A DNA stretch of 44,259 nt from Syntrophaceae bacterium (GTDB lineage Bacteria; Desulfobacterota; Syntrophia; Syntrophales; Smithellaceae): positions 1 through 44,259 of the forward strand of contig WRPE01000024.1 in assembly GCA_009773315.1 (NCBI GenBank). Reading direction: 5' to 3'. A model generated the notes under the pieces. It saw nothing but the letters and a program-made list of their open reading frames with translations. It was not told the DNA's origin and made no database searches. Positions within the stretch are counted from its first letter, which is position 1. Each line of letters opens with the position of its first letter. The translations under genes were made by a program, and so were the position numbers. Positions 1 to 35,878 of the stretch are shown here, one piece after another.

Positions 1-99
1 CACAACCAAAATCCTCAAGTGTTTGTTTGGAGTGCTTCGGTGGAGAAAATATTAGGAAAGATCAACAAATGTAAAGAAGCGTTAGACGCACTACACTAG
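1..99 (+). mobile_element. IS630-type transposase, C-terminal end (partial)
   Basis: The first 32 codons are an open frame running in from the window edge and stopping at TAG 97-99. The residues include NPQVFVW near the start and SVEKILGKI after it. This matches the usual tail of IS630-family transposases, in which an NP-x-PFxW stretch is followed by a short helix and the stop. The catalytic DDE core lies outside the window. An SMP-30-like frame begins immediately after, so the IS appears to sit inside that gene, perhaps at the TA of 97-98, the target dinucleotide of this family. The family call rests on a short tail only. Confidence 0.6.
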
Positions 100-326
100 C
101 CGTCAATCCATTTATGCGCAAGCTCACCCTGCGCCTGCCGCGCTCACTGTGGCCGGTTCCGAAAGCTTACGGACATGTGATAGCGTTCACGGAAGACGGC
201 GAGGTGGTGGCTGATTTGCAGGATCCAAGCGGTGCTTACCCGGAAACGACAGGTGTGACGGAGGCCAAAGACCGGCTCTACATCCAGAGCCTGCACGCTA
301 AGGGGTTGGGTTGGATGTCCAAATGA
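99..326 (+). pseudogene. SMP-30/strictosidine-synthase-like protein, 3' remnant
   Basis: An open frame of about 75 codons resembles the C-terminal part of bacterial strictosidine-synthase/SMP-30 beta-propellers. It has NPFMRKL and a PxPKAYGHVIAF strand, then the DGEVVADLQDPSG turn, then LYIQSLHAKGLGWM. The frame is open back to the IS630 tail at position 99, so the ATG at 114 is probably an internal Met and not a start. The N-terminal roughly three quarters of the propeller, including metal ligands, is missing, so the fragment is most likely non-functional. Its last 17 codons lie in the 164-bp repeat and recur at 13341. Confidence 0.6.
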
Positions 327-435
327 ATTTTCCATTTTCCATTAAGGGCAGGATCAGAAGCTGGAAAGTGCCATTTTTGAGGGAACCGGTCACAATTTGG
401 TTACAAAAGAAGAAAAGGGGCAAGCCGTAAATGGC
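272..435. repeat. 164-bp direct repeat, left copy
   Basis: Positions 272-435 match 13341-13504 at a constant offset of 13,069 bp. There are two differences (T318 versus C13387, G389 versus A13458). Similarity stops sharply at both ends. The copy contains the last 17 codons of the SMP-30-like frame and about 110 bp of its downstream sequence. The left copy keeps the longer SMP-30 context and the right copy keeps the tRNA-Val context. Their ancestor was therefore probably a single locus, SMP-30 gene then tRNA-Val, split by the island. Confidence 0.9.
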
Positions 436-784
436 CGGCATCAGAGTCTTGCGACGGATCAGATTCCAGCGTAATCCGCCCTTCAGACTGCTTGCGTTTC
501 GGATTGCCCAGCCAGGGATTCAAAACCTCTTTGAGAGCATCCATCAGCGATCCGATTGGACCCGGATGCACATGAACCAGGTCAATGTCTTCGGAATAGC
601 GAACGGGTTTTAAATATAATTTATACAGAGCCGTCCCACCGCAGAAAGCGAGATTTTTGGCCACGACAGAATGTCGAAATATTTCCACCAGCGCCCGGCT
701 GATCAGCAAATCCTGCTCGACCTGATCAGTTTCCGGCCAGGGTGCAATTTTTTTCCATTCTGAAATAAAATCAAGTGGTATCAA
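401..784 (-). pseudogene. AbiEii/AbiGii-type nucleotidyltransferase toxin, C-terminally truncated
   Basis: The protein is the toxin of an AbiE-type system; the family consists of nucleotidyltransferase-fold proteins that cause growth arrest. The TTG at 784 is chosen as start. It overlaps the antitoxin stop as TTGA, and from it the protein begins LIPLDFISEWKK, like intact family members. Visible signatures are QVEQDLLISRALVEIF, then FCGGTALYKLYL and RYSEDIDLV, the nucleotide-binding GG and the metal-binding D-x-D. The frame stops after 127 residues, whereas family members usually have about 250-300. The last residues, from about HLRLAP, are encoded by the 164-bp repeat, so the gene was cut at the island boundary. 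The downstream half of the fold is gone and the toxin is probably inactive. Confidence 0.8.
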
Positions 785-1563
785 ACCTCCGCCTCCACTT
801 TGGCATTGACCCAAATGCGCCAGCGTTTCAAACAACTGATTCCACGGAAAGATTGTGCTCGAATCAGCGGCACCGTCACAGGTTTTTTCCGGGCAATATA
901 TTCAGCCAGTGATTCCGTTTTATCCTGCGCACCCACGACATCCAGCAGATAACCAAGCCTTTGCGCCCATGCAATGGGTGAAAGGTCCGCGACTTGTCTC
1001 AACTCTTCTCCGTTTAATTTTTCAGCAAGCTCCGAAAGAACGGTTGCCACATGATCCAGCCCCGCCGCATGGTGAGCATAGCCCACCAGATCGAATGCGG
1101 TTGCGGCAGGTGTTGATACTTTCAGATATCCTCTGGGTGTTTTAAAATCCTGCGTGGGAATCCTTTCCACATTTTTCCTTGCGATGAACTGCACGCGCAC
1201 CTTACCGCAAATCATTTCCGGTTTGTTTCGCCCCACTACCACCTGAAAGACCTGGGGACGTTGGTGCGCCGCACCGGAATATTCGGCGGCGCTGAGCAAT
1301 CCAGCGTAATAACTTTCCTTCAAGTGGTTCATGAGATCGGGGATGAAATGACTTGCGGGAAGACAACCGATATTCCGAAACTCGGGCGGCACAATGACGT
1401 AAAATCCTTTATACGGCATGGCCAACTCGCCTTTTTGCCGCAAACGTCGAAGGGCGGCGCGTGCGGCCACTACTGAAACGCCAAAAGCACTGATCGCCTG
1501 TTCCGTGGTGAAGCTGTAGCGCCCGACAGCCATCAACTCGAATATGAATTTTTGACCGTGCAT
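781..1563 (-). CDS. AbiEi-type antitoxin (winged-helix transcriptional repressor)
   Basis: The product is the 260-residue antitoxin partner of the AbiEii-like toxin that overlaps it by 4 bp. Residues of roughly 5-55 form a winged helix-turn-helix (FTTEQAISAFGVSVVAARAAL, interrupted by a wing). The middle and C-terminal parts follow the AbiEi pattern, with YYAGLLSAAEYSGAAHQ, then the TPAATAFDLV stretch. Family members neutralise the toxin without binding it and repress their own promoter. The start at 1563 gives a full-length family member, with a purine-rich AAGGTAAGGGAG just before it. A perfect 8-bp inverted repeat lies 30 bp upstream. The gene looks intact although its toxin does not, so it now may act only as a repressor. 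Confidence 0.8.
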   Translation of the reverse strand: MHGQKFIFELMAVGRYSFTTEQAISAFGVSVVAARAALRRLRQKGELAMPYKGFYVIVPPEFRNIGCLPASHFIPDLMNHLKESYYAGLLSAAEYSGAAHQRPQVFQVVVGRNKPEMICGKVRVQFIARKNVERIPTQDFKTPRGYLKVSTPAATAFDLVGYAHHAAGLDHVATVLSELAEKLNGEELRQVADLSPIAWAQRLGYLLDVVGAQDKTESLAEYIARKKPVTVPLIRAQSFRGISCLKRWRIWVNAKVEAEV

Positions 1564-1592
1564 CTCCCTTACCTTGCATCATCTGATTGCAG

Positions 1593-1615
1593 AAAGTAAC
1601 ACTTTTCGTTACTTT
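1593..1615 (-). promoter_or_regulatory. Inverted repeat, likely AbiEi operator
   Basis: AAAGTAAC at 1593-1600 and GTTACTTT at 1608-1615 form a perfect 8-bp inverted repeat around a 7-bp spacer. It lies 30 bp upstream of the antitoxin start. AbiEi proteins are known to repress their operon by binding inverted repeats in the promoter, so this is the obvious candidate operator. The assignment is from position and symmetry only. Confidence 0.55.
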
Positions 1616-1682
1616 AGACGGGTGATTAATGTGATCAACGTATTTAACGGCTGCTTACATAATTCCCATAGTTTGAGTGTTT

Positions 1683-1874
1683 TTATACCGCCACTGGTTT
1701 CTTTCTATAAACGTTCAATCCAACTTTTACGTCTTCCTTATCGGGAATAGAAATATTCCCTTCCGTTGAAGCAATGATAATGGTCTTTCCTGACGATGAC
1801 GGGCCGAATTCTTTGGTCACATCAACCTTGATTGTCAGGATATCGCCGTCCAGTTTCATTTCTACGTTTTTCAT
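1683..1874 (-). CDS. Conserved small hypothetical protein (63 aa)
   Basis: This is a 63-residue soluble protein. It begins MKNVEMKLDGDILTIKVDV, followed by GPSSSGKTIIIASTEGN and a basic tail (GLNVYRKK). The alternation suggests a compact beta protein; there is no signal peptide or membrane segment. The ATG at 1874 is preferred because AAAGGA (1889-1884) sits about 9 nt upstream, whereas the in-frame ATG at 1883 overlaps that site. It follows hsdR on the same strand after a gap of about 80 bp and could be cotranscribed with it. I recall similar short proteins in anaerobic bacteria but cannot assign a function. The SGKT stretch is too short and lacks the context for a nucleotide-binding P-loop. 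Confidence 0.6.
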   Translation of the reverse strand: MKNVEMKLDGDILTIKVDVTKEFGPSSSGKTIIIASTEGNISIPDKEDVKVGLNVYRKKPVAV

Positions 1875-1952
1875 TTCTTTCATCCTTTTATAGTTATTCT
1901 GACATGACTCTGGCAAAGCAGGAATAATTGTACCTGCACATTTTTTGATTCG

Positions 1953-4349
1953 TTAAGCCGCAAATCTGAAAGACTTTTCCATCTCATCAACGATGTCTTG
2001 GAGCCTGCCTTCAAACCTCTGATTGATTTCATCAAACTGCCCAATAAGGCGGCAGTAGATTGGGTTAGCAAAAATTGCATTCAGGTCAAGCTTACCGTGT
2101 GACGAAATATTAACAGCGAATACGTTTTTTATCTTGCGAAGCACTTCAATCTGTTCAGGTGTAAAATTATACATTGAAATATACGTCTCAAAACCGGCTT
2201 CTATCCTTTCCGTCACGGTTGGAATTTTCTTTACCTCAAGCACGGCAAGGAAAAAGTCCCAAATGGAACCGGGTGGAAAGTCATAAATTCTTTGCAGTTG
2301 CTCTTCGCTTAGATATATCTCCGGCTTATTGACCCATTCACGAATGTAGGCAAGTTCTTCTTCCGTAGGTTCATAGTCTTTATCTTCCCATGCCTTGCGT
2401 CGTAAAAGTGCAATTAGCGGGTCTTGTGTTGATTTAACGCCTTCTTCAAAAAGCTTTCTTGCCTGATTTATCGGGATATTGTCGATTATTTTTATGTTGC
2501 CCTCCTTTATAAACACTCGCTGTATGAGATTCCTGGGGTCGGGATTGTCCAGAAGTCCCGTAATGACGCCTGGCCCAGCTCCGCCGCCGCCCCCGCCGCG
2601 ATTGTTTTTACCGTCAACAATTTTGATATTCTCTTTTGGACTTCCTTTACCATTGTCCTGCATCCTTGCGCACAGCCCGACAAAATCAAGAACTGTAAAA
2701 CTGAATTTGCCGGATTTAGGATCAAGCCTTGTTCCACGCCCAATCATTTGAATATATTTGCCCACCGACTTGGTAAGCGCTGCAAAAACTATATAACGAA
2801 CGCACGGCACGTCCACGCCTGTGGTCATTATATCGACTGACACCACAATGCGCGGGTTTTGATAAGGCCGTTCAAACCATTCTTTAATGGTGTAGTTAAG
2901 ATCATCATTTTCAGCGATAACCGCTTCAGCATAGTGGGGGCTATCGCCTTTGTCGTTAAATACTTCATTCAAGGCTTTTACCAGCATCAATGCATGGGCC
3001 TGGCTGGCGGCAAAGAAAATCGCTTTTTCGCCATACTCAGTGCGGCTCCTGACCTCTTCCGCCCATCGCATTGCCTGCTCTTCGGAGAGGATTTTTTTAT
3101 TGAGCTTTTCCAATTCGATTTTTTTCGTTTCATTGAGTTCAATACGCTTACGACTGTCAGGATCAAGCAGATGATCATACTCGATCCCATCCTTCATCGC
3201 CTGTCTGGTCAACTCGGTAATCACCTCTATCTTTGAGTAAGGTGCAAGAAATTCTTCGCGGATACCCCGGTCGAGATCAAATTCATAATCCGGATTTTTG
3301 GTTTCGCACCCAAACAAGCGATAGGTGTCCATGATCGCCAAATCTTCTTCAGGAATCTCAGCTCCTTCTTTAAGCTTGGCGATGCGCGGCGTCGCGGTAA
3401 GACCGATGCGCGGACAGAGAAAATGATCAAAAATCAGTTTGCGGTTCATGGTGATTGACCTATGGCACTCATCCACAATCAGCAGATCGTAGTAATTCTC
3501 CGGTATCCGACTGTAAAGAAGTTCGAGTGTGTCTATGACAACCACATGGACATCTTTATTTTTGTGAGCTCGAAGATTTGAAGAAGTGATCCATGAGGAA
3601 TTGTAAGTCGGGCTGATGAGACTGAACCCTTTTTGAATCGCCTGCCGGGCAAGAAATCGTCTGTCCACCACAAATAGTACGCGCTTGGCCAGCCCATACT
3701 GCAAAAGAGCCTTGACGAGTGCTACAATAACTCTTGTTTTGCCGAGACCTGTCGCCATATGCACAAGCATCTTCATTTTGCCGTTGCGATAGGCGTCCAG
3801 CAACGTTTGAATGCAATCAAACTGATAGTACCGCGCCTTGCCCGCTGTGGGATCATACCCGCCAGCGATATTCGTGTCGATGACAATATCCTGCTCACGG
3901 GTTTTCTGCTGCTCTTGCGCAATTTTGAGCTTCATCTCCTCCAAAGAAAGAAAATTGCCAACCGCCCGGAACTCCCCTGCTTCAATACCGCGCCACGACA
4001 TATCATAATGAAGGATCTTTAATCCTTCGCCTTCACCTTTGGCGCAGGCATAAAGAAAGCGTGGTTTCAGAATGCGGGAGTATTTCAAACGAAGTTTCGG
4101 CAGAGCTTTTGTTGGATATTCAAGTTTGTTTTCAATAACTGCAAGGGGCACGCCCTGGATGTCCTGAAGAACAAAGTCGGGTTTGATAAATTTACTGCCG
4201 GGGTACTCCTCCTGCTGTTCCGGGGTAAGATCATACTTCGGCTGGTATAGAAGCGTGTCTCCCAACTTCCAGTGAAGGTCTTTAAGTTCATCATATGCTT
4301 TTAGATCAACTGCGGATGCTTCATTGTCGAATATCCCGGTAGGTGGCAT
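1953..4349 (-). CDS. hsdR: Type I restriction enzyme R subunit (HsdR, EcoEI-like)
   Basis: The product is the restriction and translocation subunit of a type I system. In the 798-residue protein the N-terminal nuclease domain shows PD (57-58) and ExK (E73, K75). The helicase motor follows, with Walker A ATGLGKT (199-205), DECH (293-296) and TATP (318-321). Helicase motif VI-like IGRGTR comes later, and a glycine-rich linker (NRGGGGGGAGPG) precedes the EcoEI-type C-terminal domain. The start at ATG 4349 is chosen because GGGAG lies 8 nt upstream and it follows the hsdMS stop by only 2 nt. An in-frame TTG at 4364 would overlap hsdMS. The gene appears intact and translationally coupled to the fused methylase/specificity gene. 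Confidence 0.93.
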   Translation of the reverse strand: MPPTGIFDNEASAVDLKAYDELKDLHWKLGDTLLYQPKYDLTPEQQEEYPGSKFIKPDFVLQDIQGVPLAVIENKLEYPTKALPKLRLKYSRILKPRFLYACAKGEGEGLKILHYDMSWRGIEAGEFRAVGNFLSLEEMKLKIAQEQQKTREQDIVIDTNIAGGYDPTAGKARYYQFDCIQTLLDAYRNGKMKMLVHMATGLGKTRVIVALVKALLQYGLAKRVLFVVDRRFLARQAIQKGFSLISPTYNSSWITSSNLRAHKNKDVHVVVIDTLELLYSRIPENYYDLLIVDECHRSITMNRKLIFDHFLCPRIGLTATPRIAKLKEGAEIPEEDLAIMDTYRLFGCETKNPDYEFDLDRGIREEFLAPYSKIEVITELTRQAMKDGIEYDHLLDPDSRKRIELNETKKIELEKLNKKILSEEQAMRWAEEVRSRTEYGEKAIFFAASQAHALMLVKALNEVFNDKGDSPHYAEAVIAENDDLNYTIKEWFERPYQNPRIVVSVDIMTTGVDVPCVRYIVFAALTKSVGKYIQMIGRGTRLDPKSGKFSFTVLDFVGLCARMQDNGKGSPKENIKIVDGKNNRGGGGGGAGPGVITGLLDNPDPRNLIQRVFIKEGNIKIIDNIPINQARKLFEEGVKSTQDPLIALLRRKAWEDKDYEPTEEELAYIREWVNKPEIYLSEEQLQRIYDFPPGSIWDFFLAVLEVKKIPTVTERIEAGFETYISMYNFTPEQIEVLRKIKNVFAVNISSHGKLDLNAIFANPIYCRLIGQFDEINQRFEGRLQDIVDEMEKSFRFAA

Positions 4350-4351
4350 GG

Positions 4352-7300
4352 TCAGCTCTCCCAAATTTGATTTAAGATTGATGATATGCTGTTTTTATTT
4401 ATTTTAGATAGTTTTTTTATGGTCTTTAATGTGTTCAAGTCTGAATCAAGCTTTTGAACAAGTTCATTTTGAAATGCAATTGGGGGAAGGGCAATTTTTA
4501 CTGAATGAAATCCGGTTGCGCTTATATTATAAGTGCCACCGCCCTGCTTAGGGGATAATAATGATCGTCCGTGTTTACTCATTAAGTAATACATGACGTA
4601 ACGAGGATTAACCTGATCTTCTTTAAACCTAAATCGTATCAAATAAGAAGCATAAACAAAATCATCATTTCCCCGCCACACAGCACACTTCCCTACAAGT
4701 GCAGGATTTCCATTTGAACGAACAATGAGAAAATCATTTTCATGTAGTCTGTATTTTTCAGCCTCCTTAGCTGAAAGAGAAACCCGTTTAATATCTGATA
4801 AATCAAAATCACAAAAAGATATATTTCCAATTCTCAATACTTTATAGCCATCCTCGCTGTAATATGCTTTATCAGAAGTTCCATAAAGTGATTCTTCTAT
4901 CAGATTTCCAATTTCAACTTCTGGATAATTACAGGCATTCTCTAAATCAATGGCCCAATTTGCCAATATCATCGCCGCCCCGGTAATAATCGCCTGCTGG
5001 CGCGCAATTTCGGTAACAAGAGCTTCCTGCACATCTAATGGTGGTAATGGAATTTCAAATTCACTTAAAAAATCGGCCCCTTGTTCATTTTTTATTCCTT
5101 TATTTTTTTGTTCGTTCAGTAAATTTTGAAACTGTAATGAGCGAAGCATATTTATTAAGAATGAAGGATGAACATCTAAAGCCTGTATTTCATAAATCTG
5201 ATAATGTGTTGACGCGACAAGATCACAAGGGGCTAATGCTATCGCGCCTTGGTGAATGTTTATTTTAGAAGTTATCAGATTTCCTTTTATCGCCTTGTAT
5301 AAATCCATCCCTGTTTCCCGCGATTCTCGGAAATGCAATACGCCATCACCAAAAGATATTTTTTCGACAACCGGTAATTGTCCATCGTAGTCGATTTTTT
5401 TAATTCGTTCATAGATGGGTTCTATTAAATCCTTTAATTTGATTCGTGGATGTTTCGCCGCTGTGGTAATAATATCTGAAAGGGTCTGCAAATGAGGTTG
5501 ATCTGTGTAAGTTTCCGGAGAAAGATCGTTAAGAAACTGCCGGGCAATATCCAGTTCCAGAGCATTACGCGGATCAAGCGCGGACAGACAGCGGTCAAGC
5601 TTGCCGGGTTTTGCCGCCTGGAGGCGGGCGTATTGGCGGTCAAGCGTTTCATCAGTGACCGTTTCCCGCTCGGCGGCAAATGCCGTCCAGGCGTCAATCT
5701 GTGACTGCGATAGATTGCTCCGGTAATTGGGCAGATTAAAGGAATACAGGTGCGCCCGCTCGATGCGCCGGGCAATTTCATTGCTGATTTTACCCTGCCA
5801 GATTTGGTCATTCTGTACAAGCCTGTCATCAATTTCGCTTTGTGTAATTTTACCGTTTTGCAGGCGGGCTGTCAGCGTTTCCATAAGTTTTGATTTTTCT
5901 TCCGAAGCTTTAAAGGTCAGATCTGCTGTCGTTTCAGTGCGGATACGTTCTTTCACCCGCGGATCGAGCGCCTTGATCCAATCCGCGGGAATGGTGAAAG
6001 AGTGGCGGGTATCGGGCGGAATTTTACCTTTGCCCAGATACCGGTGAAATAGGTCAAGCGCTTCGGTAAGCTGGCAGCCTGGTATGGGCTTTCGGTTTGT
6101 TCCCATGCTGTAACCATCATTAATAACCTTGTAAAACCAGACCTGCCGGGTAGGCTCTCCTTTTTCAAAATACAGGATGGATGTTTTGGGACCCTGCCCG
6201 CCTTTGCTGACAAATAAGCCCTGCGGCAGGCTGATAATGGCTTTGAGGTTGGCATCTTCCAGAAGAGATTTCCGCAAGGCGCGGGCGCTGTTCTGGTCCC
6301 ATGTCATAAAGCCCTCGGAAACAATTACGGCGCAGCGGCCTTTTGTCTTAAGCGTTTCCAGCATCAGCTTAACAAACAGGATGGTTGTTTCCGATTCTTT
6401 TGGATATTCGCTCCAAACGTCGGGGTAGGCTTCTTGATCACGCTCGGCGCCGAATGGCGGATTTGCCAGAATGGCAGTTTTGCTTTCCGGGTAGAAATCT
6501 TTTTTAAAACGCGCCAGCGAATCACCCTGAATAATATTGGCCGGATTAAGATTCCGGATATAGAAATTGATAGAAGCCATCTTGCGAATCATGCCGAGAT
6601 ATTCGATACCCGTGACACCGGTGCGGTAAAAATCCGTTGTCAATTCAACCGTCGGCATCGGAATATTTTTCTTTATAAAATATTCTTTAAACCAAGCCGC
6701 CATTTCCGGATGAGCTTTCACACCCGGCCATTTACTATCCTTGTTTACCGCTTCCATGACATATTCAAAAGCGTCAAATAGAAAACCTGCTGTGCCGCAT
6801 GCCGGATCTAAGATCAGGTCGCTAAATTGCGGTTCAACCAGAGCAACCATAAAATGACGAATATGTTCCGGTGTGCGGAAAAGGCCAATGTCTTTAGTGC
6901 CGCCGGTTTCCGAAAGCGCCGATTCAATGGCGTCACCCAGCAAATCGGTCTTCAACAGCCGCTCTTCGTCCAGTTCGCCAACGAGGCTGATGACTTCCTG
7001 TAAATTGCCGCTCGTTACGTTGTTGGTGAAGTTGGAATTGCTGAATACTTCTTCAATCAGCACAAGCTGATCCTGCACCTTGATGGAAGGATTGCCCTTG
7101 ATAACTTTCCGGGCTTCACTAAGAATGCGGGCATAAAATGGGAAAAAGTCACTGTTAAGTTTTGGTAGTATCTGATCGTTAGGAACCGCAAAAAGAGAAG
7201 AAAATAGTAGCGACTCGTTTTCATTGCGGAACAACGGGCGCAGTTGCTCAAATTCTGCGTCATGCTTTAGTTTTGCTTCAAAGATGCGCAAAAGCAGAAG

Positions 7301-7417
7301 CTCGATGATATATTCGACACGCTGAACTGGCGTGCCTGCGGGGCGTAATTTGTTGTGAAGCTTTCTGAGGATGTTGTTTGTGGCGTTATCCGAATAGTGA
7401 ACAGTTGATCGTGCCAT
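4352..7417 (-). CDS. Fused type I modification methylase and specificity subunit (HsdM-HsdS)
   Basis: This 1021-residue protein joins two subunits that are usually separate. Residues 1 to about 560 are an N6-adenine methylase: a helical N-terminal domain, SAM motif DPACGTAGF (204-212) and catalytic NPPFG (319-323). Residues from about 640 form two target-recognition repeats. The first ends in FEIPLPPLDVQEALVTEI and the second, from about 829, ends in VKIALPPIAFQNELVQKL. Each is followed by a helical conserved region, the normal HsdS layout. The complex should methylate adenines in a bipartite target and direct HsdR. AGAAGGA precedes the ATG at 7417. No separate hsdS is present next to it, which supports a genuine fusion rather than an annotation artefact. 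Confidence 0.9.
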   Translation of the reverse strand: MARSTVHYSDNATNNILRKLHNKLRPAGTPVQRVEYIIELLLLRIFEAKLKHDAEFEQLRPLFRNENESLLFSSLFAVPNDQILPKLNSDFFPFYARILSEARKVIKGNPSIKVQDQLVLIEEVFSNSNFTNNVTSGNLQEVISLVGELDEERLLKTDLLGDAIESALSETGGTKDIGLFRTPEHIRHFMVALVEPQFSDLILDPACGTAGFLFDAFEYVMEAVNKDSKWPGVKAHPEMAAWFKEYFIKKNIPMPTVELTTDFYRTGVTGIEYLGMIRKMASINFYIRNLNPANIIQGDSLARFKKDFYPESKTAILANPPFGAERDQEAYPDVWSEYPKESETTILFVKLMLETLKTKGRCAVIVSEGFMTWDQNSARALRKSLLEDANLKAIISLPQGLFVSKGGQGPKTSILYFEKGEPTRQVWFYKVINDGYSMGTNRKPIPGCQLTEALDLFHRYLGKGKIPPDTRHSFTIPADWIKALDPRVKERIRTETTADLTFKASEEKSKLMETLTARLQNGKITQSEIDDRLVQNDQIWQGKISNEIARRIERAHLYSFNLPNYRSNLSQSQIDAWTAFAAERETVTDETLDRQYARLQAAKPGKLDRCLSALDPRNALELDIARQFLNDLSPETYTDQPHLQTLSDIITTAAKHPRIKLKDLIEPIYERIKKIDYDGQLPVVEKISFGDGVLHFRESRETGMDLYKAIKGNLITSKINIHQGAIALAPCDLVASTHYQIYEIQALDVHPSFLINMLRSLQFQNLLNEQKNKGIKNEQGADFLSEFEIPLPPLDVQEALVTEIARQQAIITGAAMILANWAIDLENACNYPEVEIGNLIEESLYGTSDKAYYSEDGYKVLRIGNISFCDFDLSDIKRVSLSAKEAEKYRLHENDFLIVRSNGNPALVGKCAVWRGNDDFVYASYLIRFRFKEDQVNPRYVMYYLMSKHGRSLLSPKQGGGTYNISATGFHSVKIALPPIAFQNELVQKLDSDLNTLKTIKKLSKINKNSISSILNQIWES

Positions 7418-7567
7418 GGTTTATTAAATCCTTCTCGTATTGTTATGTGAGCGGCGAGCAGTATAGAAAGCGCATTTTCTTATTCTTAGTATTCTTTAGG
7501 TTAGGTCTTGAAATATAAGCATTCCGACATTCTGCCATATCATTGTCTTCCGTTATCATCATGTCTA

Positions 7568-8917
7568 TCAGCCTGTGTTTTCGGTCTTCCAGTAACCACC
7601 TTTTGCAGGCCCAACTCGCAGGATAGCTCCTTTGCTTTTTAATTTCTTCAAATTGTTTTCCACGGCAGTTGTACCGATACCGATTTTTTCAGATAAGCCA
7701 TTGATTGTAACGTGCGGGTCGGCGGCAATTGCATCCAAAATCCTTGTTTCACTCTGACTGAAATTTTCTCCCCACTTTCTCCCCACTTTCTCCCCATTTT
7801 CACTGACCTTTTCACCCACCGGCGCTTTCCGGAAACGGACGGACAATCCCCCAAATTCTTCTTTAAAGTCCGGCTCCGGCAACCCGGCCTTTTTGCATTC
7901 GTCCACAATCTTGATGGTGCCGCGGCCCCAGGCTTCAATCATGCCCGCCTTGAAAAAAACGTCAGCCAGAAGCTCATTTCGCGGACGGGACAAATGCCAT
8001 TTCTTTAAATCTTCCACGGCAATGCCGGGCGGCAGCCCACCTTCATTCCAGAGGTTGAGGCTGTCGGGATCGATCCGCAGCTGGGTGTGCGCACCCATGT
8101 AATTGCGGTGAATCACGGCGTTGATGATGGCTTCGCGCAGGGCCTCTTCCGGATATTCCATATTGTCTTTGCGGTAAATGCCTTCATACGTGATGTTGGA
8201 AAGCAGGTATTTGATCCGCAACATTTCAATGGCCTTATCCACCTGATCAAAGAGGTTGCCTTCAACATCGTCCGTGCTGATCAGATCGGTAGCGCTGATA
8301 AATTTGCCGATCTTGATGTAGGCTGTTACGTGGAATTTCTTCGGGTTTTTACCGAACAGCAAAACGGCGGCGCGGCGCAGTTTGCCCTTTTCCAGAAGGT
8401 TTAATTTCTGGAGGATCGCCTGGACGTTTTTTTCCGCTGCAATTTGCGGGATTTTTTTGGCGGCCAGTTTCCGAAATTTGTTAATAGCGGATGTGTCAAT
8501 GTCTTTGAGGGTTGCGCCCTCTTCGATAAATCCATCCCAGGAGCGTCCGGATTTCTGCATCAGCAGATCGACCAATTCATGTCCCTTAATTTCAATCGAG
8601 GAACTGCCGCTGCGCGTAAAAAACCGGCCATGATAGGAAATCGGCGCGGACGACGGGGACACCGATACTTCAATAATATCCTTGCCTGTTTTCTTGTTGA
8701 TGCTGACGTCGGGCGTAATGCCCAGGATGTCTTTGGTTTTATTGGGGATGTCGTCGAGGAAGCGAGCGGCGTCTTTCACGCCCACCGGTTTGCCTTCATC
8801 ATCAATGCCGATATAGAGCTTTCCGCCGCCGGTATTGGCAAAAGCGCAAATAGTTTTCAAACAGTTATCATTCCAAGTCTGCTTGAATTCTTTATTTTGA
8901 TTCTCAACCTTGCGCAT
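7568..8917 (-). CDS. AlbA_2 (Schlafen-like) / RecG-like ATP-binding domain transcriptional regulator
   Basis: This is a 449-residue member of the family often labelled putative DNA-binding or RecG-like protein. The N-terminal AlbA_2 domain has EFKQTW, CAFANTGGGKLYIGID and a GVKDA turn. The middle (about 230-370) is the HATPase_c_4-type domain, with REAIINAVIHRNY, LWNEGGLPPG and EAWGRGTIKI. A charged linker with repeated GEKVxxxWGE precedes a C-terminal winged helix (TRILDAIAADPHVTINGLSEKIG). The ATG at 8917 is preferred because AAAGGG lies 5 nt upstream; an ATG at 8932 has none. Relatives are common beside restriction-modification genes. Whether this one defends, regulates or binds RNA/DNA cannot be told here. 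It has its own spacing (150 bp) from hsdMS. Confidence 0.8.
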   Translation of the reverse strand: MRKVENQNKEFKQTWNDNCLKTICAFANTGGGKLYIGIDDEGKPVGVKDAARFLDDIPNKTKDILGITPDVSINKKTGKDIIEVSVSPSSAPISYHGRFFTRSGSSSIEIKGHELVDLLMQKSGRSWDGFIEEGATLKDIDTSAINKFRKLAAKKIPQIAAEKNVQAILQKLNLLEKGKLRRAAVLLFGKNPKKFHVTAYIKIGKFISATDLISTDDVEGNLFDQVDKAIEMLRIKYLLSNITYEGIYRKDNMEYPEEALREAIINAVIHRNYMGAHTQLRIDPDSLNLWNEGGLPPGIAVEDLKKWHLSRPRNELLADVFFKAGMIEAWGRGTIKIVDECKKAGLPEPDFKEEFGGLSVRFRKAPVGEKVSENGEKVGRKWGENFSQSETRILDAIAADPHVTINGLSEKIGIGTTAVENNLKKLKSKGAILRVGPAKGGYWKTENTG

Positions 8918-9138
8918 GATGACCCTTTGCATGCTTCAAATTGGCATAAAAGAAAACTTAATGATTTATCGGCATCTTACAATTTTACCAAGACATTGCA
9001 AGGATAAAATGTCATTGGTAAAGCGCCACCGACGGCCATTCATCGAATTCAAGACGTGCAGACAAAGCAGCTAATTCAATGTTCGGGCCAGCCTTTGGCA
9101 GCGTTTGTGCGCTTAAAATCGTCATTCGATTGAACCAT

Positions 9139-9312
9139 TTATTTTCCAGTGCGAACTAAAGTATTATCTCTGCATAATTCACTTTGCTTTTTCTTTTTTT
9201 GAGCGAATTCCTTTTGAAAGAAGTCGTTCGCGTCTCTCGCGGATTGATGCAGTTGCTCTATTTCGGAGGGTGTCAGCATCTCGGAAACCGTAATGATTTC
9301 TGGTTTTCTCAT
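9139..9312 (-). CDS. Small hypothetical protein (57 aa)
   Basis: A 57-codon frame starts MRKPEIITVSEMLTPSEIEQ and continues with a lysine-rich stretch (QKEFAQKKKKQ). It looks like a short helical, soluble protein. I do not recognise a family. If one copy of the 34-bp tandem duplication just upstream is removed, the preceding gene would end in TAA immediately before this ATG (TTGTAAATG). That is the arrangement of a coupled pair and is the main support for this frame. No strong ribosome-binding site is seen. Confidence 0.5.
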   Translation of the reverse strand: MRKPEIITVSEMLTPSEIEQLHQSARDANDFFQKEFAQKKKKQSELCRDNTLVRTGK

Positions 9313-9360
9313 TTACAAACCCAAATACCAGATTACCTTTGTTGTCTTCAGTTCATTCTC

Positions 9361-9428
9361 GACCCAACCAGTAAATTCATTTATCAATTTTAGCGACCCA
9401 ACCAGTAAATTCATTTATCAATTTTAGC
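9361..9428. repeat. Perfect 34-bp tandem duplication
   Basis: Positions 9361-9394 and 9395-9428 are identical 34-bp units with no spacer. The unit length is not a multiple of three. It lies at the 3' end of the minus-strand gene ending at 9377 and shifts its frame. Its perfection suggests a recent event. Confidence 0.95.
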
Positions 9429-9769
9429 GTACTTCGTTTTCTTCTGGACAAAGATGAAAAATAGAAGTCGTTTCCGCAAAAATAATTTCTGTAATAGTTT
9501 TCCAAATCACCAGTATTGTCATTTTCAATCAGCAACTTAAGACTATTCAATTCTTTGACTATCTTTCTCCAGTTTTTTTCATCAATTCTAATAAAATCAT
9601 AATAATCAAATTTATTAACAAATTTAAATGCTGGTAATATTAATTCTATATCTTCTTCTGAAAGATAAATTGATTCATTATTCCAACATTGACCGCTATA
9701 TTTGCCCGGATAAAATTCTATATAGCAGGTTCCTCTAAGTTTCTTTCGGTTTTTTATAATTATGCTCAT
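9377..9769 (-). CDS. Hypothetical protein with duplicated, frameshifted 3' end (130 aa)
   Basis: The frame from ATG 9769 encodes MSIIIKNRKKL, then an acidic, aromatic-rich protein (ELILPAFKFVNKFDYYDF, YFCGNDFYFSSLSRRKR). As it stands it ends NEFTGWVAKIDK. If one of the two 34-bp repeat units is removed, the frame instead continues NEFTGWVENELKTT and ends IWYLGL with TAA directly before the next ATG. That longer tail (W-x-E then an aliphatic -LGL end) resembles the ends of several small contact-toxin immunity proteins. This is a weak analogy. The duplication therefore replaces about 15 native C-terminal residues by five. The upstream extension to 9844 overlaps the DUF932 relic and is not used. 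Function unknown. Confidence 0.6.
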   Translation of the reverse strand: MSIIIKNRKKLRGTCYIEFYPGKYSGQCWNNESIYLSEEDIELILPAFKFVNKFDYYDFIRIDEKNWRKIVKELNSLKLLIENDNTGDLENYYRNYFCGNDFYFSSLSRRKRSTLKLINEFTGWVAKIDK

Positions 9770-9777
9770 ATATAATG

Positions 9778-10331
9778 CTATGCGGCCATTCTGATCGCCG
9801 TATTCAGCGCCTGCCTGTTGACTTTTGTGCTTTCGCCGAACCACAGGCTGCTCAAAGTGTTATCCTGCGATTTGCCCCGGAAATAATTGAGATATTCGGT
9901 CACGGCGTTGTATGCGCCACAGGGTCTATTTTATTGACATCCATGTTGCCGTCACGGATTCTTGCCAGCGCCCAGACCTGCCTGCCGCCTTTAAGGCTGC
10001 CGGCTGTTTCGAGCGTCGCCTCATTAGCGTCAAGAAAGGGTTGAAACCATTCCAGCGCGTGTTCATTTTGAAGCGGCGTATAATCAGACCCGACAATGCC
10101 CAGAAAAGCATTATCCGAAGTGCGACAGACGGCAAAGTGATCCAGAATGCCCGTGTTGGTAATACCTTCAGGCATTTCGGTAAAGATGCGCCTCAGTTCC
10201 ACCTGCCAGTCCAGTTTTGCCGCTATGATGGCCTCCCGGACGCTTATCTTTTTATCCTCCGGGATCGGCGTACCCAGCCCGTGCCAGGGTGTTTTTCCAA
10301 CATACATCATGCTTTCCACTAAATGCGCCAT
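9778..10331 (-). pseudogene. DUF932-family protein with internal deletion
   Basis: From ATG 10331 (AAGGAGG upstream) the frame gives MAHLVESMMYVGKTPWHGLG and then a DUF932-type N-terminal half with WQVELRR, SDYTPLQNEHALEWFQPF and GRQVWALARI. It stops at 9900. In another frame the typical C-terminus is present (AYNAVTEYLNYFRGKSQ, then SSLWFGEST and QALNTAIRMAA, stop 9778-9780). Intact members have about 300-350 residues, so roughly 130-150 middle residues are deleted and the frame is broken at the scar near 9910-9930. DUF932 proteins are typical of phages and plasmids. The relic points to a mobile origin for this part of the island. Confidence 0.8.
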
Positions 10332-10368
10332 GATTGCCTCCTTTTTAGGCCTTCTATGCCATGAATCT

Positions 10369-12735
10369 CTATAACGATATCAGCTTTTCTTTCATGAACT
10401 TCTTTGCCCAATCAAGCAAAGGTGCGCCGTCTATTATCGGTTTGAAATCCTTGATCCGATCTTCCAATTCTCTCCGGCTTTTCGACACAACCGCTTCCCA
10501 TTCATCCCTTCTGTTTCCAAACTTCAATTCCAGAAACGCCAGAATGATCGCCGTGGTCAATATATCCAGGCAATCCGCTCTTTTTTTCATCTGCATGTCG
10601 TCAGCGATGGAACGCAATTTTGAATCAGATATTTTTAAAATATCGCATACTCTTCTATTAATATTAAATCCGCCTCCGATCCTTTGTTGTGCAAGGATGT
10701 CCATAAGTGGATCACGTTTGCTCCTTTGCGACAGCACATTCCGGATTCCCGCCGCAGCCTTTCTGAAGGGCATGCAAAGAGTATGGCCCGAAATCAGGTG
10801 ACTCAGAAAATCGGGTGCTGGATCAGCCACCTGTCCACTTTGATGGCTTTCCGAAACATCTATGATGGAATATTGCACCGTGCTTTTTCTTAGAAACGCT
10901 GGCTGGCTGCTTGTGCCGTGCCACCCTTTGGTCACATTGGCAGGAACAACCCGCAAAACCATGTCTGAAGTTTCAGTTTTTCCGTCGGTTTTTTTCTCTA
11001 TACCCACAAAACTGGTTGATCTGCTGAGAATTCCATATTGCAGGGAAATGCTCGTAACGGTTTCATGTTTCTTTTCATCAATCCTCTGGCGTTGCTGTGA
11101 GCCTTTCCGCAAACCGCTGCCTTCTTCAAGATCCCGGATTTTTTCCCGCGCCCATAGTTTTGATATGGGCATTACCTCGCCATTTACTTTTTCCAGATCA
11201 ATATCCCACTTTCTTGATATCGTCCCTTGATGATTATATTGCTTAACGGTGACGCCTTTACCCTGGAAGTCACTCTTTTTTATTTTGACGAATATGCTGG
11301 TTGCCTGTCGCATGAAGGCAACGGGACAAGCAGGAGTCTGGTCAATATCGCTGCCGCAGTCAATTTCCAGTTTGCTGATGCGTCCGGCCATGACTTTTTG
11401 AAAGAGACGCAGGATTTTCGGTTCAATCCTTTCCTGTGGCGCAATCAGCTCCGACGCACCGCCGGCAACTCTTGCCACTGCCTTGATGAGAAACTCGTTC
11501 GGACCGCTGCCAATGCCGACTGTGGATAGTTTAGCTTTATTATCATGGCGTTGAACCAATTCCATTATTTCGTCTTCGTTGCTGATTTGGCCATCGGTTA
11601 TCAGGATAACATCCCTGCGGAATCCGCCCGCCGGTTCTTCTTTGTATATGTCCGCCAGTGGAGGCAGGATTTGTGTGCCGCCCATCGAGGCATCCGTTTT
11701 AGAAAGATATTTCAGGGCTTCCTTCATTGTTTTTTCATTGTATGGCTTGCTCGATTTATACAGATGATCAAATTCATTTCCAAAACGATAGATATTGAAC
11801 ATCATGTCCGTACTTAGTGCTTTGATAAGAATCTCCAGGGCTTTTTTGGCTTCCTCAATGGAGTCGCCTTGCATGGAGCCGGAACAATCAAGAACAAAAA
11901 CGATTTCTCTGCCCTTGGGCAAATCATTGTCTTGGTTTTCTTCTGTTTTTTCATCCGGTGTCAGGTCGATCTGTAGAAAGGTTTCACCAGCGGCTTGGGA
12001 AGTATAGGCTCTATTGGTAAAGTTCTTTTTATAAGTGATGGTCAGAATAAAGTCTCGATCCATCGAAATTTTGTCGGCGGAAAAGATAACGTGAGTTTCA
12101 TCGTTTTTGAAACTGGTCTTGATTGTATGAGACGGTGATTCAATGGATGCAATGGCTTTCTTGTCGGCAATATTCACATTGATTGTCAGACCATAGGAAA
12201 CCTTAAAGGCAAAAGGCGGATTGACCAGAGCGCTTGCAGGTATGCCGTTTTCATCTTTTTGAGATGCCGGCGTGAATCGCGGTGATATGGTTGTGGGTAA
12301 AAAGAACCGCACTTCCGAATTGTAAGAGTCCAGAAGGGTAATATAGGTTATTTCAATAATCACATTGCCGCCGGGCTTTATATTACCGACAGAAAGGGTG
12401 AAAATATTCGGGCGCTCTTCATCCATAAGCTGAGCATTATGCCCGTCAGCCAAAGCCTTGTCGTAAAGTTCAAAGGCCTTTTCCTTTTCTTCAATTCTGC
12501 CTTCAACGATTCTGCCGTCGATTAGAGCCCTGAACCCGCAAATGGCGGCATTTTCCGGCACGGGGAATTTATAAACGGCTTCGATTGATTTTTTCTCTGT
12601 GTTCTTGAATTGTTGGGAAACTTTAACTTTGGCCCCGCGCCCGGCTATGTCCGCCTGAATATCTACTCCGGCAAGCGGTACCGCTTCGCCGTTTTGCTGA
12701 GTTAAAATTCCTTCGGTCTCACTGCTGTCATTCAT
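10369..12735 (-). CDS. VIT and VWA domain protein
   Basis: This is a 788-residue protein. The N-terminal VIT (inter-alpha-trypsin) domain spans about 10-140, with FKNTEKKSIEAVYKFPVPE and AICGFRALIDGRIVEGRI. A linker follows, then a von Willebrand A domain from about 275 with the metal-site motif DCSGS (D283, S285, S287). The C-terminal third (about 620-788) is helical and resembles the tail of VWA5A-like proteins. No signal peptide or transmembrane segment is seen, so it is probably cytoplasmic, unlike many bacterial VIT-VWA proteins. It overlaps the MerR gene by 8 bp, with AAAGGGG before the ATG, so the two are cotranscribed. Its partner and role are unknown. Confidence 0.88.
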   Translation of the reverse strand: MNDSSETEGILTQQNGEAVPLAGVDIQADIAGRGAKVKVSQQFKNTEKKSIEAVYKFPVPENAAICGFRALIDGRIVEGRIEEKEKAFELYDKALADGHNAQLMDEERPNIFTLSVGNIKPGGNVIIEITYITLLDSYNSEVRFFLPTTISPRFTPASQKDENGIPASALVNPPFAFKVSYGLTINVNIADKKAIASIESPSHTIKTSFKNDETHVIFSADKISMDRDFILTITYKKNFTNRAYTSQAAGETFLQIDLTPDEKTEENQDNDLPKGREIVFVLDCSGSMQGDSIEEAKKALEILIKALSTDMMFNIYRFGNEFDHLYKSSKPYNEKTMKEALKYLSKTDASMGGTQILPPLADIYKEEPAGGFRRDVILITDGQISNEDEIMELVQRHDNKAKLSTVGIGSGPNEFLIKAVARVAGGASELIAPQERIEPKILRLFQKVMAGRISKLEIDCGSDIDQTPACPVAFMRQATSIFVKIKKSDFQGKGVTVKQYNHQGTISRKWDIDLEKVNGEVMPISKLWAREKIRDLEEGSGLRKGSQQRQRIDEKKHETVTSISLQYGILSRSTSFVGIEKKTDGKTETSDMVLRVVPANVTKGWHGTSSQPAFLRKSTVQYSIIDVSESHQSGQVADPAPDFLSHLISGHTLCMPFRKAAAGIRNVLSQRSKRDPLMDILAQQRIGGGFNINRRVCDILKISDSKLRSIADDMQMKKRADCLDILTTAIILAFLELKFGNRRDEWEAVVSKSRRELEDRIKDFKPIIDGAPLLDWAKKFMKEKLISL

Positions 12736-13117
12736 TATCCATTTCCCCTTTCGCTATGGACTTGGCGAGCCTGATGATTTCGAGAACCTTTTTCGGTTCC
12801 TTGATCTCTATTTCCCTGCTGATGTTGACTTCAATACCCGGTACAATCTCATACCGGATCATGACTTCTCTGGAAGGAAGAACCGCTTCAGGCACTTCCT
12901 TTTTCATCAAAGAAACCATTGCCGTGATCCCGATGCCCTTTTCCTGAAACGATTTAATCCGCAACAACTGCTGGACATGGCTGTCATAATAAAAACCGCC
13001 ACGTCCTCGCCCGGCAGGCGGGTCAATAAGGCCTTCCTGGACATAATAACGTATTGTTCTTCTTGTGTATCCAGTAAGTTCGCCGAGCTCTTCTATAGTG
13101 TATTTTTTTATTTCCAT
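12728..13117 (-). CDS. MerR-family transcriptional regulator
   Basis: The product is a 129-residue regulator. Residues 1-70 are a MerR winged helix: YTIEELGELTGYTRRTIRYY then VQEGLIDPP, with the wing GRGRGGFYYD, and QLLRIKSFQEKGIGI starting the dimer helix. The C-terminal part is short and has no cysteine cluster, so a metal-sensing role is unlikely. The start at 13117 is chosen because a TTGACA-N17-TATTAT promoter ends 6 bp before that ATG. An upstream in-frame ATG at 13156 would lie in front of the promoter. It overlaps the VIT-VWA gene by 8 bp and probably controls that pair. Confidence 0.85.
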   Translation of the reverse strand: MEIKKYTIEELGELTGYTRRTIRYYVQEGLIDPPAGRGRGGFYYDSHVQQLLRIKSFQEKGIGITAMVSLMKKEVPEAVLPSREVMIRYEIVPGIEVNISREIEIKEPKKVLEIIRLAKSIAKGEMDNE

Positions 13118-13123
13118 GGCTTT

Positions 13124-13152
13124 ATAATAACATTCAACTGTCATTATGTCAA
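13124..13152 (-). promoter_or_regulatory. Promoter with MerR-type dyad, likely leaderless transcript
   Basis: On the minus strand TTGACA (13152-13147) and TATTAT (13129-13124) are separated by exactly 17 bp. Between them lies the dyad TAATGACA-N6-TGTTATTA (13146-13125; one mismatch), overlapping the -10. The predicted transcription start falls at or next to the A of the MerR ATG (13117), so the mRNA would have little or no leader. Repression by the MerR protein itself is the natural inference. Confidence 0.6.
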
Positions 13153-13340
13153 GCATGGAGATAAAATAGCAAGCAGAAGGAAAATTATTGAAAGATATTG
13201 ATACTGACAGAGATAATAGTGGATAAAAAAAGAAAAGCCGTGAATGGTTTTTGACCAGAGGGCTTTACTTGCCCAAGGTGAAAACTGCCATTCGCGACTC
13301 AAAGAAACCTCCGATGCAACCAGCAAGGTTTGTGCTCAAT

Positions 13341-13504
13341 CCGGCTCTACATCCAGAGCCTGCACGCTAAGGGGTTGGGTTGGATGCCCAAATGAATTTT
13401 CCATTTTCCATTAAGGGCAGGATCAGAAGCTGGAAAGTGCCATTTTTGAGGGAACCGATCACAATTTGGTTACAAAAGAAGAAAAGGGGCAAGCCGTAAA
13501 TGGC
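13341..13504. repeat. 164-bp direct repeat, right copy
   Basis: This is the second copy of 272-435 (162 of 164 identical). It carries only the last 17 codons of the SMP-30-like gene with no coding sequence before them. It ends 18 bp from the encoded CCA of tRNA-Val. See the left copy for the comparison. Confidence 0.9.
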
Positions 13505-13522: not shown

Positions 13523-13597
13523 TGGTAGGCGGTGCTGGGATTGAACCAGCGACTTCTACCGTGTGAAGGTAGCACTCTCCCGCTGAGTTAACCGCCC
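13523..13597 (-). tRNA. tRNA-Val (anticodon CAC)
   Basis: The reverse complement folds as a complete 75-nt tRNA. The acceptor GGGCGGT pairs with ACCGCCT (first pair G-U), the anticodon stem CTACC/GGTAG encloses TTCACAC, so the anticodon is CAC reading GUG. The T arm is CTGGTTCAATCCCAG. The discriminator A and CCA are encoded (CCA at 13525-13523). The gene lies at the right edge of the island defined by the direct repeats. Confidence 0.95.
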
Positions 13598-35738: not shown

Positions 35739-35750
35739 CTTTGCAAATAA

Positions 35751-35783
35751 CCTTTTAAATTAATCCGGTGAGATTGAAAAAGG
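35751..35783 (+). promoter_or_regulatory. PyrR-binding hairpin (anti-antiterminator)
   Basis: AATCCGGTGAGATT (35762-35775) matches the PyrR binding consensus ARUCCNGNGAGGYU except for one base, and that base restores a U-A pair. It folds as AAUC/GAUU closing a CGGUGA hexaloop on top of a lower stem CCTTTT/AAAAAGG (35751-35756, 35777-35783). The 3' arm GAAAAAGG can instead pair with CCTTTCTC in the following terminator. This is the layout of the PyrR attenuators. Confidence 0.8.
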
Positions 35784-35791
35784 ACGATGTA

Positions 35792-35878
35792 ATGAAAATA
35801 TTAAAACTAAAGTCAATTAAGGCCTTTCTCCGCAAGGGGAAGGGCCTTTTTTATGTCTGTTCACGAATTTTTAACTAA
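35792..35878 (+). CDS. Possible 28-codon leader peptide overlapping the attenuator
   Basis: The short frame starts MKILKLKSIKAF and runs through the whole terminator hairpin, stopping at TAA 35876-35878. AGGA with 7 nt spacing precedes the ATG and lies in the 3' arm of the PyrR hairpin, so PyrR binding would hide it. It could be translated and influence the attenuator, or be chance. No homology is claimed. Confidence 0.35.
   Translation: MKILKLKSIKAFLRKGKGLFYVCSRIFN
35819..35852 (+). terminator. Attenuator terminator upstream of pyrR
   Basis: AAGGCCTTTCTCC (35819-35831) and GGGGAAGGGCCTT (35836-35848) form a 13-bp stem with two G-U pairs, a GCAA loop and six U (35847-35852). It ends about 105 bp before the pyrR start. 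It also closes any read-through from lepB. Confidence 0.88.

What the first reader, a model, noticed from the sequence alone, without database searches (positions are those of the whole stretch)
10369..13152. MerR regulator and cytoplasmic VIT-VWA protein as an overlapping, self-controlled pair
The genes overlap by 8 bp, and the promoter has a near-perfect dyad between -35 and -10. Its start point falls at the MerR ATG, so the mRNA may be leaderless. VIT-VWA proteins are seldom linked to a regulator, and this one lacks a signal peptide. Being in an island of defence genes, it may be an undescribed module.
Basis: partly seen in the sequence, partly recalled or inferred. Interest (0 to 1): 0.65.

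Follow-up and report, generated by a model that had tools for sequence, protein, structure and literature searches.

The report
Mobile MerR and VIT-VWA gene pair
A small DNA-binding regulator and a large internal scaffold-like protein related to animal PARP4 travel together as a two-gene unit across many bacterial phyla, under a promoter whose predicted start lies at the first codon; what the unit does is not known.

Summary
MerR (12728-13117, minus) overlaps the VIT-VWA gene (10369-12735) by 8 bp behind TTGACA-N17-TATTAT, 6 nt before the MerR ATG. The pair is not private to this genome: of 40 loci found with the MerR alone, 32 have VIT-VWA directly downstream. The operator ATGACA-N6-TGTYAT starts 27-30 nt before the MerR start in 21 of 23 loci; at up to 2 mismatches the promoter geometry occurs in 15 of 33 MerR genes and 1 of 312 control genes. 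This supports autoregulation and a leaderless first gene. MerR linkage goes with the cytosolic VIT-VWA class; copies with a secretion-type N terminus lack it. The linked core shares a C-terminal domain with a faint match to PARP4's extreme C terminus. Here the pair is cargo of a 13.07-kb island between 164-bp direct repeats beside tRNA-Val, absent in a sister genome. Most likely an autorepressed operon whose product feeds back on its own repressor; repression is inferred, feedback and defence are untested, and no recurrent third gene was found. A new variant of known kinds, not described in the papers searched.

The parts
10369..12735 (-). VIT-VWA protein, 788 aa: VIT (about 20-135), VWA (275-450) with intact MIDAS residues, beta/helical part to about 583, disordered linker 584-673, helical C-terminal domain 675-788; no signal peptide
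12728..13117 (-). MerR-family regulator, 129 aa: HTH domain about 1-75, low-confidence stretch 75-81, C-terminal beta-hairpin (86-100) and helices (101-127)
13127..13144 (-). Operator ATGACAGTTGAATGTTAT (family consensus ATGACA-N6-TGTYAT), in the spacer and overlapping the -10
13147..13152 (-). -35 element TTGACA
   Evidence: sequence; conserved; geometry control
13124..13129 (-). -10 element TATTAT; 6 nt to the ATG of MerR (predicted leaderless mRNA)
272..435 (+). Left copy of the 164-bp direct repeat that bounds the island (begins inside the 3' end of a plus-strand reading frame that ends at 326)
13341..13504 (+). Right copy of the 164-bp direct repeat (99%), 18 nt from tRNA-Val
13523..13597 (-). 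tRNA-Val (cac) beside the island

Best explanation
A horizontally mobile, autoregulated two-gene operon. A MerR dimer binds ATGACA-N6-TGTYAT, which lies across the 17-bp spacer and the -10 of a strong sigma70-type promoter, and represses it by occlusion (inferred). When repression is relieved, transcription starts at the A of the MerR ATG, so MerR is translated from a leaderless mRNA (inferred from conserved geometry), while VIT-VWA is translated from a Shine-Dalgarno-led start that overlaps the MerR stop (seen in the sequence). VIT-VWA is a cytosolic, metal-site (MIDAS) protein-binding scaffold of the PARP4/VWA5A kind (inferred from homology). The most likely signal to MerR is VIT-VWA itself or its client, bound through the short C-terminal hairpin-helix of MerR, as glutamine synthetase signals to GlnR; this step is a guess. 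The circuit appears to control only its own promoter.
For: Pairing: 32 of 40 loci found by MerR; 9 of 9 MerR hits in 395 genomes of the phylum, of which six were already rows of the query model and three (G247, G254, G331) are new; this genome and all 4 relatives with VIT-VWA of 48% identity or more have MerR upstream. Co-inheritance: distances of the two proteins correlate, r 0.90 over 28 pairs, 0 of 5000 permutations as high. Operator and promoter: operator start -27 to -30 in 21 of 23 loci; geometry in 15 of 33 MerR genes vs 1 of 312 control genes at up to 2 mismatches. Repressor rather than MerR-type activator: best-scoring spacer is 17 bp in 20 of 34 pair loci and 19-20 bp in 3 (ties broken towards 17); MerR activators use 19-20 bp (recalled). 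Single target: a profile of the promoter finds the pair's own promoter at E 1e-12 to 9e-10 in 5 of 5 carrier genomes (four of these promoters are in the model; the window's is not), and nothing above the level (E 0.001-0.006) also seen in genus members G014 and G017, where no pair was found; only 150 candidate sites per genome were scored. Second gene: an in-frame start 8 bp inside the MerR stop in 11 of 32 loci and 4 bp inside in 7, with 4 or more of 6 bases of AGGAGG upstream in those. Cytosolic class: 39 of 39 linked rows lack an N-terminal hydrophobic stretch (maximum 1.63), 24 of 25 unlinked rows have one (1.72 or more). Scaffold: VIT-VWA profile matches PARP4 at E 9e-93 and ITIH chains; MIDAS residues invariant in 14. 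Protein-effector precedent: GlnR and glutamine synthetase, as stated in the CvkR paper.
Against: No transcript or binding data. 12 of 33 MerR genes do not show the geometry even at 3 mismatches. Taking the best-scoring hexamers, 23 of 34 pair loci have 6-9 nt from -10 to start, 4 have 3-10 outside that range, and 7 have 15-29 nt, i.e. a leader or a missed promoter (L036, L047, L050, L058, L063, L070, L080); L128 has about 14 nt and L129 no such promoter (by eye). Eight of 40 MerR loci have no VIT-VWA hit (two of them at contig ends), so MerR can live without it, and those MerR proteins keep the C-terminal motif. Nothing here shows contact between the two proteins. The C-terminal domain is absent from one core protein (L037, frame ends at 682) and not detected in the more distant linked proteins.
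Confidence: 0.5

Rival explanations
1. Defence or toxin-antitoxin-like module: MerR is an antitoxin-like autorepressor and VIT-VWA the poison or phage sensor that is released on infection.
For: Type II TA-like layout (small DNA-binding gene first, overlapping second gene, autoregulated promoter); patchy, cross-phylum spread; here inside a 13-kb island with AbiEi, type I R-M and a Schlafen/AlbA protein; plasmid copies in Massilia and Aquabacterium, the latter with AbiEii and a DNA methyltransferase upstream.
Against: VIT-VWA matches no PADLOC family at E 0.01 and MerR matches only the HTH of mad1; no enzymatic effector domain found in VIT-VWA; the 20 adjacent genes scanned one by one elsewhere are mixed and include ordinary metabolism; no VIT-VWA match in 50,697 phage records and no MerR relative confirmed in the viral contigs by the peptide-pattern scan.
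Confidence: 0.2
2. Ordinary stress or housekeeping operon: MerR senses a small molecule or metal and activates VIT-VWA, which has some non-conflict role; it is in the island only as passenger.
For: The MerR family is dominated by ligand-sensing activators (recalled); several loci lie among metabolic genes.
Against: Mostly 17-bp spacing and near-consensus hexamers do not need activation; in the model the C-terminal part is short and has no long dimerisation helix directly after the HTH (pTM 0.49).
Confidence: 0.25
3. The close promoter is not the real one: MerR is translated from an upstream start or from a longer transcript, and the leaderless reading is an accident of spacing.
For: In-frame upstream start codons exist in some copies, including this one at 13156.
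Against: In 11 of the 19 core loci L031-L049 there is no in-frame start codon upstream of the one used here; the fixed distance over 21 of 23 loci is unexplained by this reading.
Confidence: 0.05

Closest known systems
CvkR (Alr3614), MerR-type repressor of type V-K CAST, PMC9938897 (abstract passage and other passages read)
   Same: Small MerR-type protein; leaderless mRNA; short palindromic operator with half-sites AnnACA / TGTnnT (CvkR AnnACA-TnA-TGTnnT; here ATGACA-N6-TGTYAT); sits in a mobile element; structure match of the HTH (7xn2, Z 9.7, rmsd 2.3, 77 residues)
   Different: Half-site spacing 6 instead of 3; controls its own operon, not cas12k/tnsB; partner is VIT-VWA; C-terminal part not shown to be homologous; leaderless is shown for CvkR, predicted here
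GlnR/TnrA (MerR family)
   Same: Best sequence match in PDB (GlnR, E 1.4e-7); precedent for a protein as effector (glutamine synthetase)
   Different: NCBIfam TnrA model 28.2 bits vs cut-off 140; no nitrogen-metabolism context seen; different operator (GlnR/TnrA motif recalled)
PARP4, VWA5A and the intracellular VIT-vWFA clade (PMC10539598, passages and section 22 read)
   Same: VIT-VWA order, cytosolic, a C-terminal domain; PARP4 is the top PDB match (E 9e-93), and the C-terminal domain profile finds PARP4 1575-1648 weakly (E 0.9, third hit)
   Different: No PARP or BRCT domain found; bacterial; operon with MerR; no vault protein was searched for
TIGR03788 marine proteobacterial sortase target
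   Same: VIT-VWA homology over 25-606 (354 bits)
   Different: Below the curated cut-off of 551.65; no signal peptide; MerR-linked

Membership tests
MerR family | MerR winged-helix HTH domain | tested here: met
   MerR_1 59.8 bits vs cut-off 21.6; Z 12.8, rmsd 1.6, 76 residues to PbrR691
MerR family, classical activator branch | 19-20 bp spacer between -35 and -10 (recalled definition) | tested here: not met
   17 bp here; best-scoring spacer 17 bp in 20 of 34 pair loci, 19-20 bp in 3
MerR family, classical activator branch | Long dimerisation helix directly after the HTH domain (recalled definition) | tested here: inconclusive
   Predicted monomer has a loop and hairpin there (pTM 0.49)
CvkR | Leaderless mRNA | tested here: inconclusive
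   Promoter geometry predicts it; no 5' mapping
CvkR | Encoded beside cas12k in a CAST element | tested here: not met
   Pfam scans of 20 window proteins, including those next to the pair, show no cas12k or tnsB
GlnR/TnrA | Curated family score | tested here: not met
   NF053740 28.2 bits vs 140
Intracellular VIT-vWFA proteins (PARP4/VWA5A-like) | VIT then VWA with MIDAS, no signal peptide | tested here: met
Intracellular VIT-vWFA proteins (PARP4/VWA5A-like) | Homologous C-terminal domain | tested here: inconclusive
   PARP4 1575-1648 at E 0.9, behind two other hits; VWA5A sequence not compared
TIGR03788 sortase target | Curated score and secretion | tested here: not met
   354 vs 551.65 bits; no N-terminal hydrophobic stretch
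Type II toxin-antitoxin | Overlapping pair with a putative autoregulatory DNA-binding first gene | tested here: met
   layout and operator only; binding not shown
Type II toxin-antitoxin | Toxicity of second gene relieved by first | not testable with these tools
   needs expression in a laboratory strain
MoxR-vWA conflict systems (PMC7159879, search listing only) | MoxR ATPase partner | tested here: inconclusive
   No recurrent third gene by all-vs-all BLAST; only the top 25 Pfam families of 101 neighbours were shown

The most novel reading that the evidence does not exclude
An undescribed, cross-phylum mobile conflict or stress module in which a leaderless MerR autorepressor holds in check a bacterial homologue of the vault-associated PARP4/VWA5A scaffolds, complete with a C-terminal domain related to PARP4's major-vault-protein-interacting domain; the two proteins form a sensing complex in which VIT-VWA state sets MerR repression.
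Probability: 0.2. Interest if true: 0.8.

Novelty: new variant of a known kind. Interest (0 to 1): 0.58.

Why it matters
[quoted passage not shown] A compact bacterial operon that pairs the cytosolic class with its own regulator gives a simple genetic handle: the regulator's signal should reveal what the scaffold responds to. It is also an apparent second case, beside CvkR, of a leaderless MerR-type gene in mobile DNA, here with the promoter-to-codon distance kept across several phyla, which is a natural test of what leaderless translation is for.

Tried and rejected
Other targets of MerR: a simple pattern is not specific (67 hits in this genome against 37 for the reversed control). A promoter profile in 5 carrier genomes (150 of 350 to 1266 candidates scored per genome) gave only the pair's own site strongly; the next site in this genome (G000:C43:22020-22061, before a DUF4301 gene, E 0.004) was dropped because genus members G014 and G017, in whose fetched VIT-VWA loci no MerR was found, give hits as good (E 0.006, 0.001).

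A fixed third gene: none in 40 loci by all-vs-all BLAST of crude ORF calls. Two loose coincidences were not followed: a DUF932 gene near the pair both here and in L044, and an Hsp70-like gene after the pair in L031. Defence enrichment: I gave 101 of the 235 neighbours within 6 kb to PADLOC and Pfam and made no matched control, so those counts are used neither for nor against.

Phage or viral origin: no VIT-VWA match in phages, no confirmed MerR relative in viral contigs. Plasmids: 17 records with VIT-VWA at E 1e-20 or better, none covering 80% of the query; I looked at 4 of 17: two have MerR adjacent, one (Pontibacter) has none annotated next to it, one (Nonomuraea) has no annotation.

Structure: the structural second look at MerR covers mainly residues 2-80 and that of VIT-VWA mainly 271-474, so no fold is claimed for either C-terminal part. 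No complex was predicted.

Literature: searches found no paper on a MerR/VIT-VWA pair. One search listed 6 papers that hold both terms once each; I saw only the listing and read none of them. Two vault papers were checked for PARP4 passages without gain. Subscription papers and preprints are not held.
Full report
What is there. On the minus strand a 129-aa MerR-family protein (12728-13117) is followed, with 8 bp overlap, by a 788-aa VIT-VWA protein (10369-12735). The promoter TTGACA-N17-TATTAT ends 6 nt before the MerR ATG. The 18-bp operator ATGACAGTTGAATGTTAT (13144-13127) lies across the spacer and into the -10.

The pair is conserved. Of 119 genomes (this one and relatives), 33 have a VIT-VWA match at E 1e-20. 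The best match of 30 of them was fetched: the five with 48% identity or more (this genome included) all carry MerR just upstream, and the other 25 (about 26-31%) show no MerR match. A scan of species genomes with the five MerR proteins found 40 loci. VIT-VWA lies directly downstream on the same strand in 32 of 40 (in L065 only the VWA part matches); of the 8 others, two end at the contig edge (L066, L067), one is a Chloroflexi MAG (L061), and five are Deltaproteobacteria MAGs with a MerR alone (probably termite gut, recalled from the isolate names). Record titles of the 32 include Deltaproteobacteria and Desulfobacterales, Myxococcales, Chloroflexi, Nitrospirae, Bacteroidota, Acidobacteriota, Spirochaetales, TA06, Lentisphaeria, Delongbacteria and Burkholderiales. 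In an even sample of 395 genomes of the phylum, 9 have this MerR (E 1e-25) and 9 of 9 have VIT-VWA next to it. Six of the nine (the window's genome and those of L003, L033, L036, L037 and L043, judged by identical sequence or place) were rows of the query model; G247, G254 and G331 are new.

Promoter and leader. The operator begins 27-30 nt before the MerR start in 21 of 23 loci, with a loose pattern drawn up after seeing the alignment; the two misses (L052, L055) have altered versions. As a control, promoters with 16-18 bp spacing and 5-8 nt to the start, at up to 1, 2, 3 mismatches, occur in 6, 15, 21 of 33 MerR genes and 0, 1, 3 of 312 other genes in the same loci (the window's own copy is not among the 33). 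With any start in the first 50 codons the controls give 0, 4, 6 of 312. Taking the best-scoring hexamers at each of 34 pair loci, 23 have 6-9 nt between -10 and start, 4 have 3, 4, 10 and 10, and 7 have 15-29. L128 has about 14 nt and L129 no such promoter (by eye). So the leaderless reading is well supported for the core group, is not universal, and is a prediction. The second gene has an in-frame start 8 bp inside the MerR stop in 11 of 32 loci and 4 bp inside in 7, with a Shine-Dalgarno-like site (4 or more of 6 bases); the rest range from 20 bp inside to 32 bp after.

One target. A profile of 20 promoters (the window's own copy left out, four of the other carriers in) finds the pair's own promoter in 5 of 5 carrier genomes at E 1e-12 to 9e-10. 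The next site in this genome is no better than hits in genus members in which no pair was found. Weaker or different sites would be missed.

Two classes of VIT-VWA. All 39 linked rows lack an N-terminal hydrophobic stretch (maximum 1.63 on the Kyte-Doolittle scale, starts chosen by rule; three rows are second copies of the same genome record, and some are fragments), while 24 of 25 unlinked rows have one (1.72-2.96; exception L019). From the VIT-VWA side (31 of 395 genomes at E 1e-90; 30 loci fetched and examined): 12 have MerR adjacent, 1 (L138) is cut by the contig end, 11 have no MerR and a hydrophobic stretch of 1.62 or more ahead of the VIT domain, and 6 have no MerR and 160-451 extra residues ahead of the VIT match, whose location class is unknown; two of these 17 (L142, L156) have too little upstream sequence to exclude MerR. 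In a tree of 31 linked and 24 unlinked proteins one branch separates them (SH-aLRT 100). Fragments or interrupted copies L034, L035, L046, L049, L065 and L029, and duplicates, were left out; the unlinked rows all come from relatives of this genome, and several long branches make the inner order unsure. Chloroflexota, Nitrospirota and Bacteroidota copies nest among the Deltaproteobacteria ones, which fits transfer. MerR and VIT-VWA distances agree (r 0.90, 28 pairs, 0 of 5000 permutations; 0.78 in the 16 core pairs).

The proteins. VIT-VWA is predicted as VIT, VWA, a disordered linker 584-673 and a helical C-terminal domain (mean pLDDT 76). It aligns with ITIH1 over 514 residues (Z 23.5, rmsd 7.3). 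MIDAS residues are invariant in 14 proteins. A profile of the C-terminal domain, built from 14 core proteins, also finds L048, L050, L052, L055 and L058 outside the training set (E 2e-22 to 2.5e-4), none of 25 unlinked proteins (one of them cut short), and not L037 or the more distant linked ones. In PDB its third hit is PARP4 1575-1648 at E 0.9, behind a repeat protein (E 0.003) and an unrelated mycoplasma protein (E 0.18). Alone this is chance level; it gains weight only because PARP4 is independently the top match of the VIT-VWA part (E 9e-93) and the order of parts is the same. PARP4 carries a major vault protein interacting domain (figure legend seen); that it lies at these coordinates is recalled. 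A paper on Dictyostelium Vwa1 describes a 101-aa C-terminal domain shared with VWA5A and a clade of intracellular VIT-vWFA proteins that includes bacteria.

MerR is closest in sequence to GlnR in PDB and has a short C-terminal hairpin and helix in the model. The nearest functional parallel is CvkR: MerR-type, leaderless, repressor, motif AnnACATnATGTnnT, whose half-sites equal those here with a different spacing.

The island. A 164-bp direct repeat (99%) at 272-435 and 13341-13504 bounds 13,069 bp. The left copy begins in the last codons of a reading frame that ends at 326; the right copy ends 18 nt from tRNA-Val. In G007, a member of the same genus with no VIT-VWA match, one copy of the repeat continues directly into both flanks (95% to window 96-436, 86% from 13341 on). 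This is an empty site; whether it is before insertion or after loss cannot be told. Cargo: AbiEii fragment (401-835), AbiEi, type I R and M-S genes, SLFN_AlbA_2, an unassigned 155-aa frame, a TIGR03299/DUF932 fragment (99.9 bits, below the TIGR03299 cut-off of 110.7), then the pair. No recombinase was recognised among the nine island frames scanned. Five of 36 other loci have a tRNA gene within 1.5 kb of the pair; no formal test was made.

Verdict. A real, conserved, self-controlled and probably leaderless two-gene module; new as a unit in the papers searched; the mechanism beyond autoregulation is a proposal, and the defence role is open.

Noticed in passing
window 272-13504: 13.07-kb island between 164-bp direct repeats beside tRNA-Val, absent in sister genome G007; no integrase recognised among the frames scanned
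   Followed up: partly
window 401-835 (-): AbiEii gene is cut short (matches 1-88 of 238 profile positions) where it runs into the left repeat; AbiEi beside it looks whole
   Followed up: partly
window 9900-10331 (-): Fragment of a DUF932/TIGR03299 phage- or plasmid-like protein next to the pair; a DUF932 gene also lies upstream of the pair in L044
   Followed up: no
window 9360-9427: Perfect tandem duplication of 34 bp at the end of an unassigned 155-aa frame
   Followed up: no
window 42165-42263 and 42314-42412: 99-bp repeat pair (94%); pieces recur in relatives at 670-780 of L119 and in L102
   Followed up: no
L031 3636-6062: Hsp70-like 808-aa gene directly after the VIT-VWA gene in a close relative
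   Followed up: no
L051, L053, L054, L056, L057: MerR relatives with the same C-terminal motif but no VIT-VWA match nearby and no comparable promoter at the start codon
   Followed up: no
window 35747-35854: PyrR binding site (Rfam RF00515)
   Followed up: no
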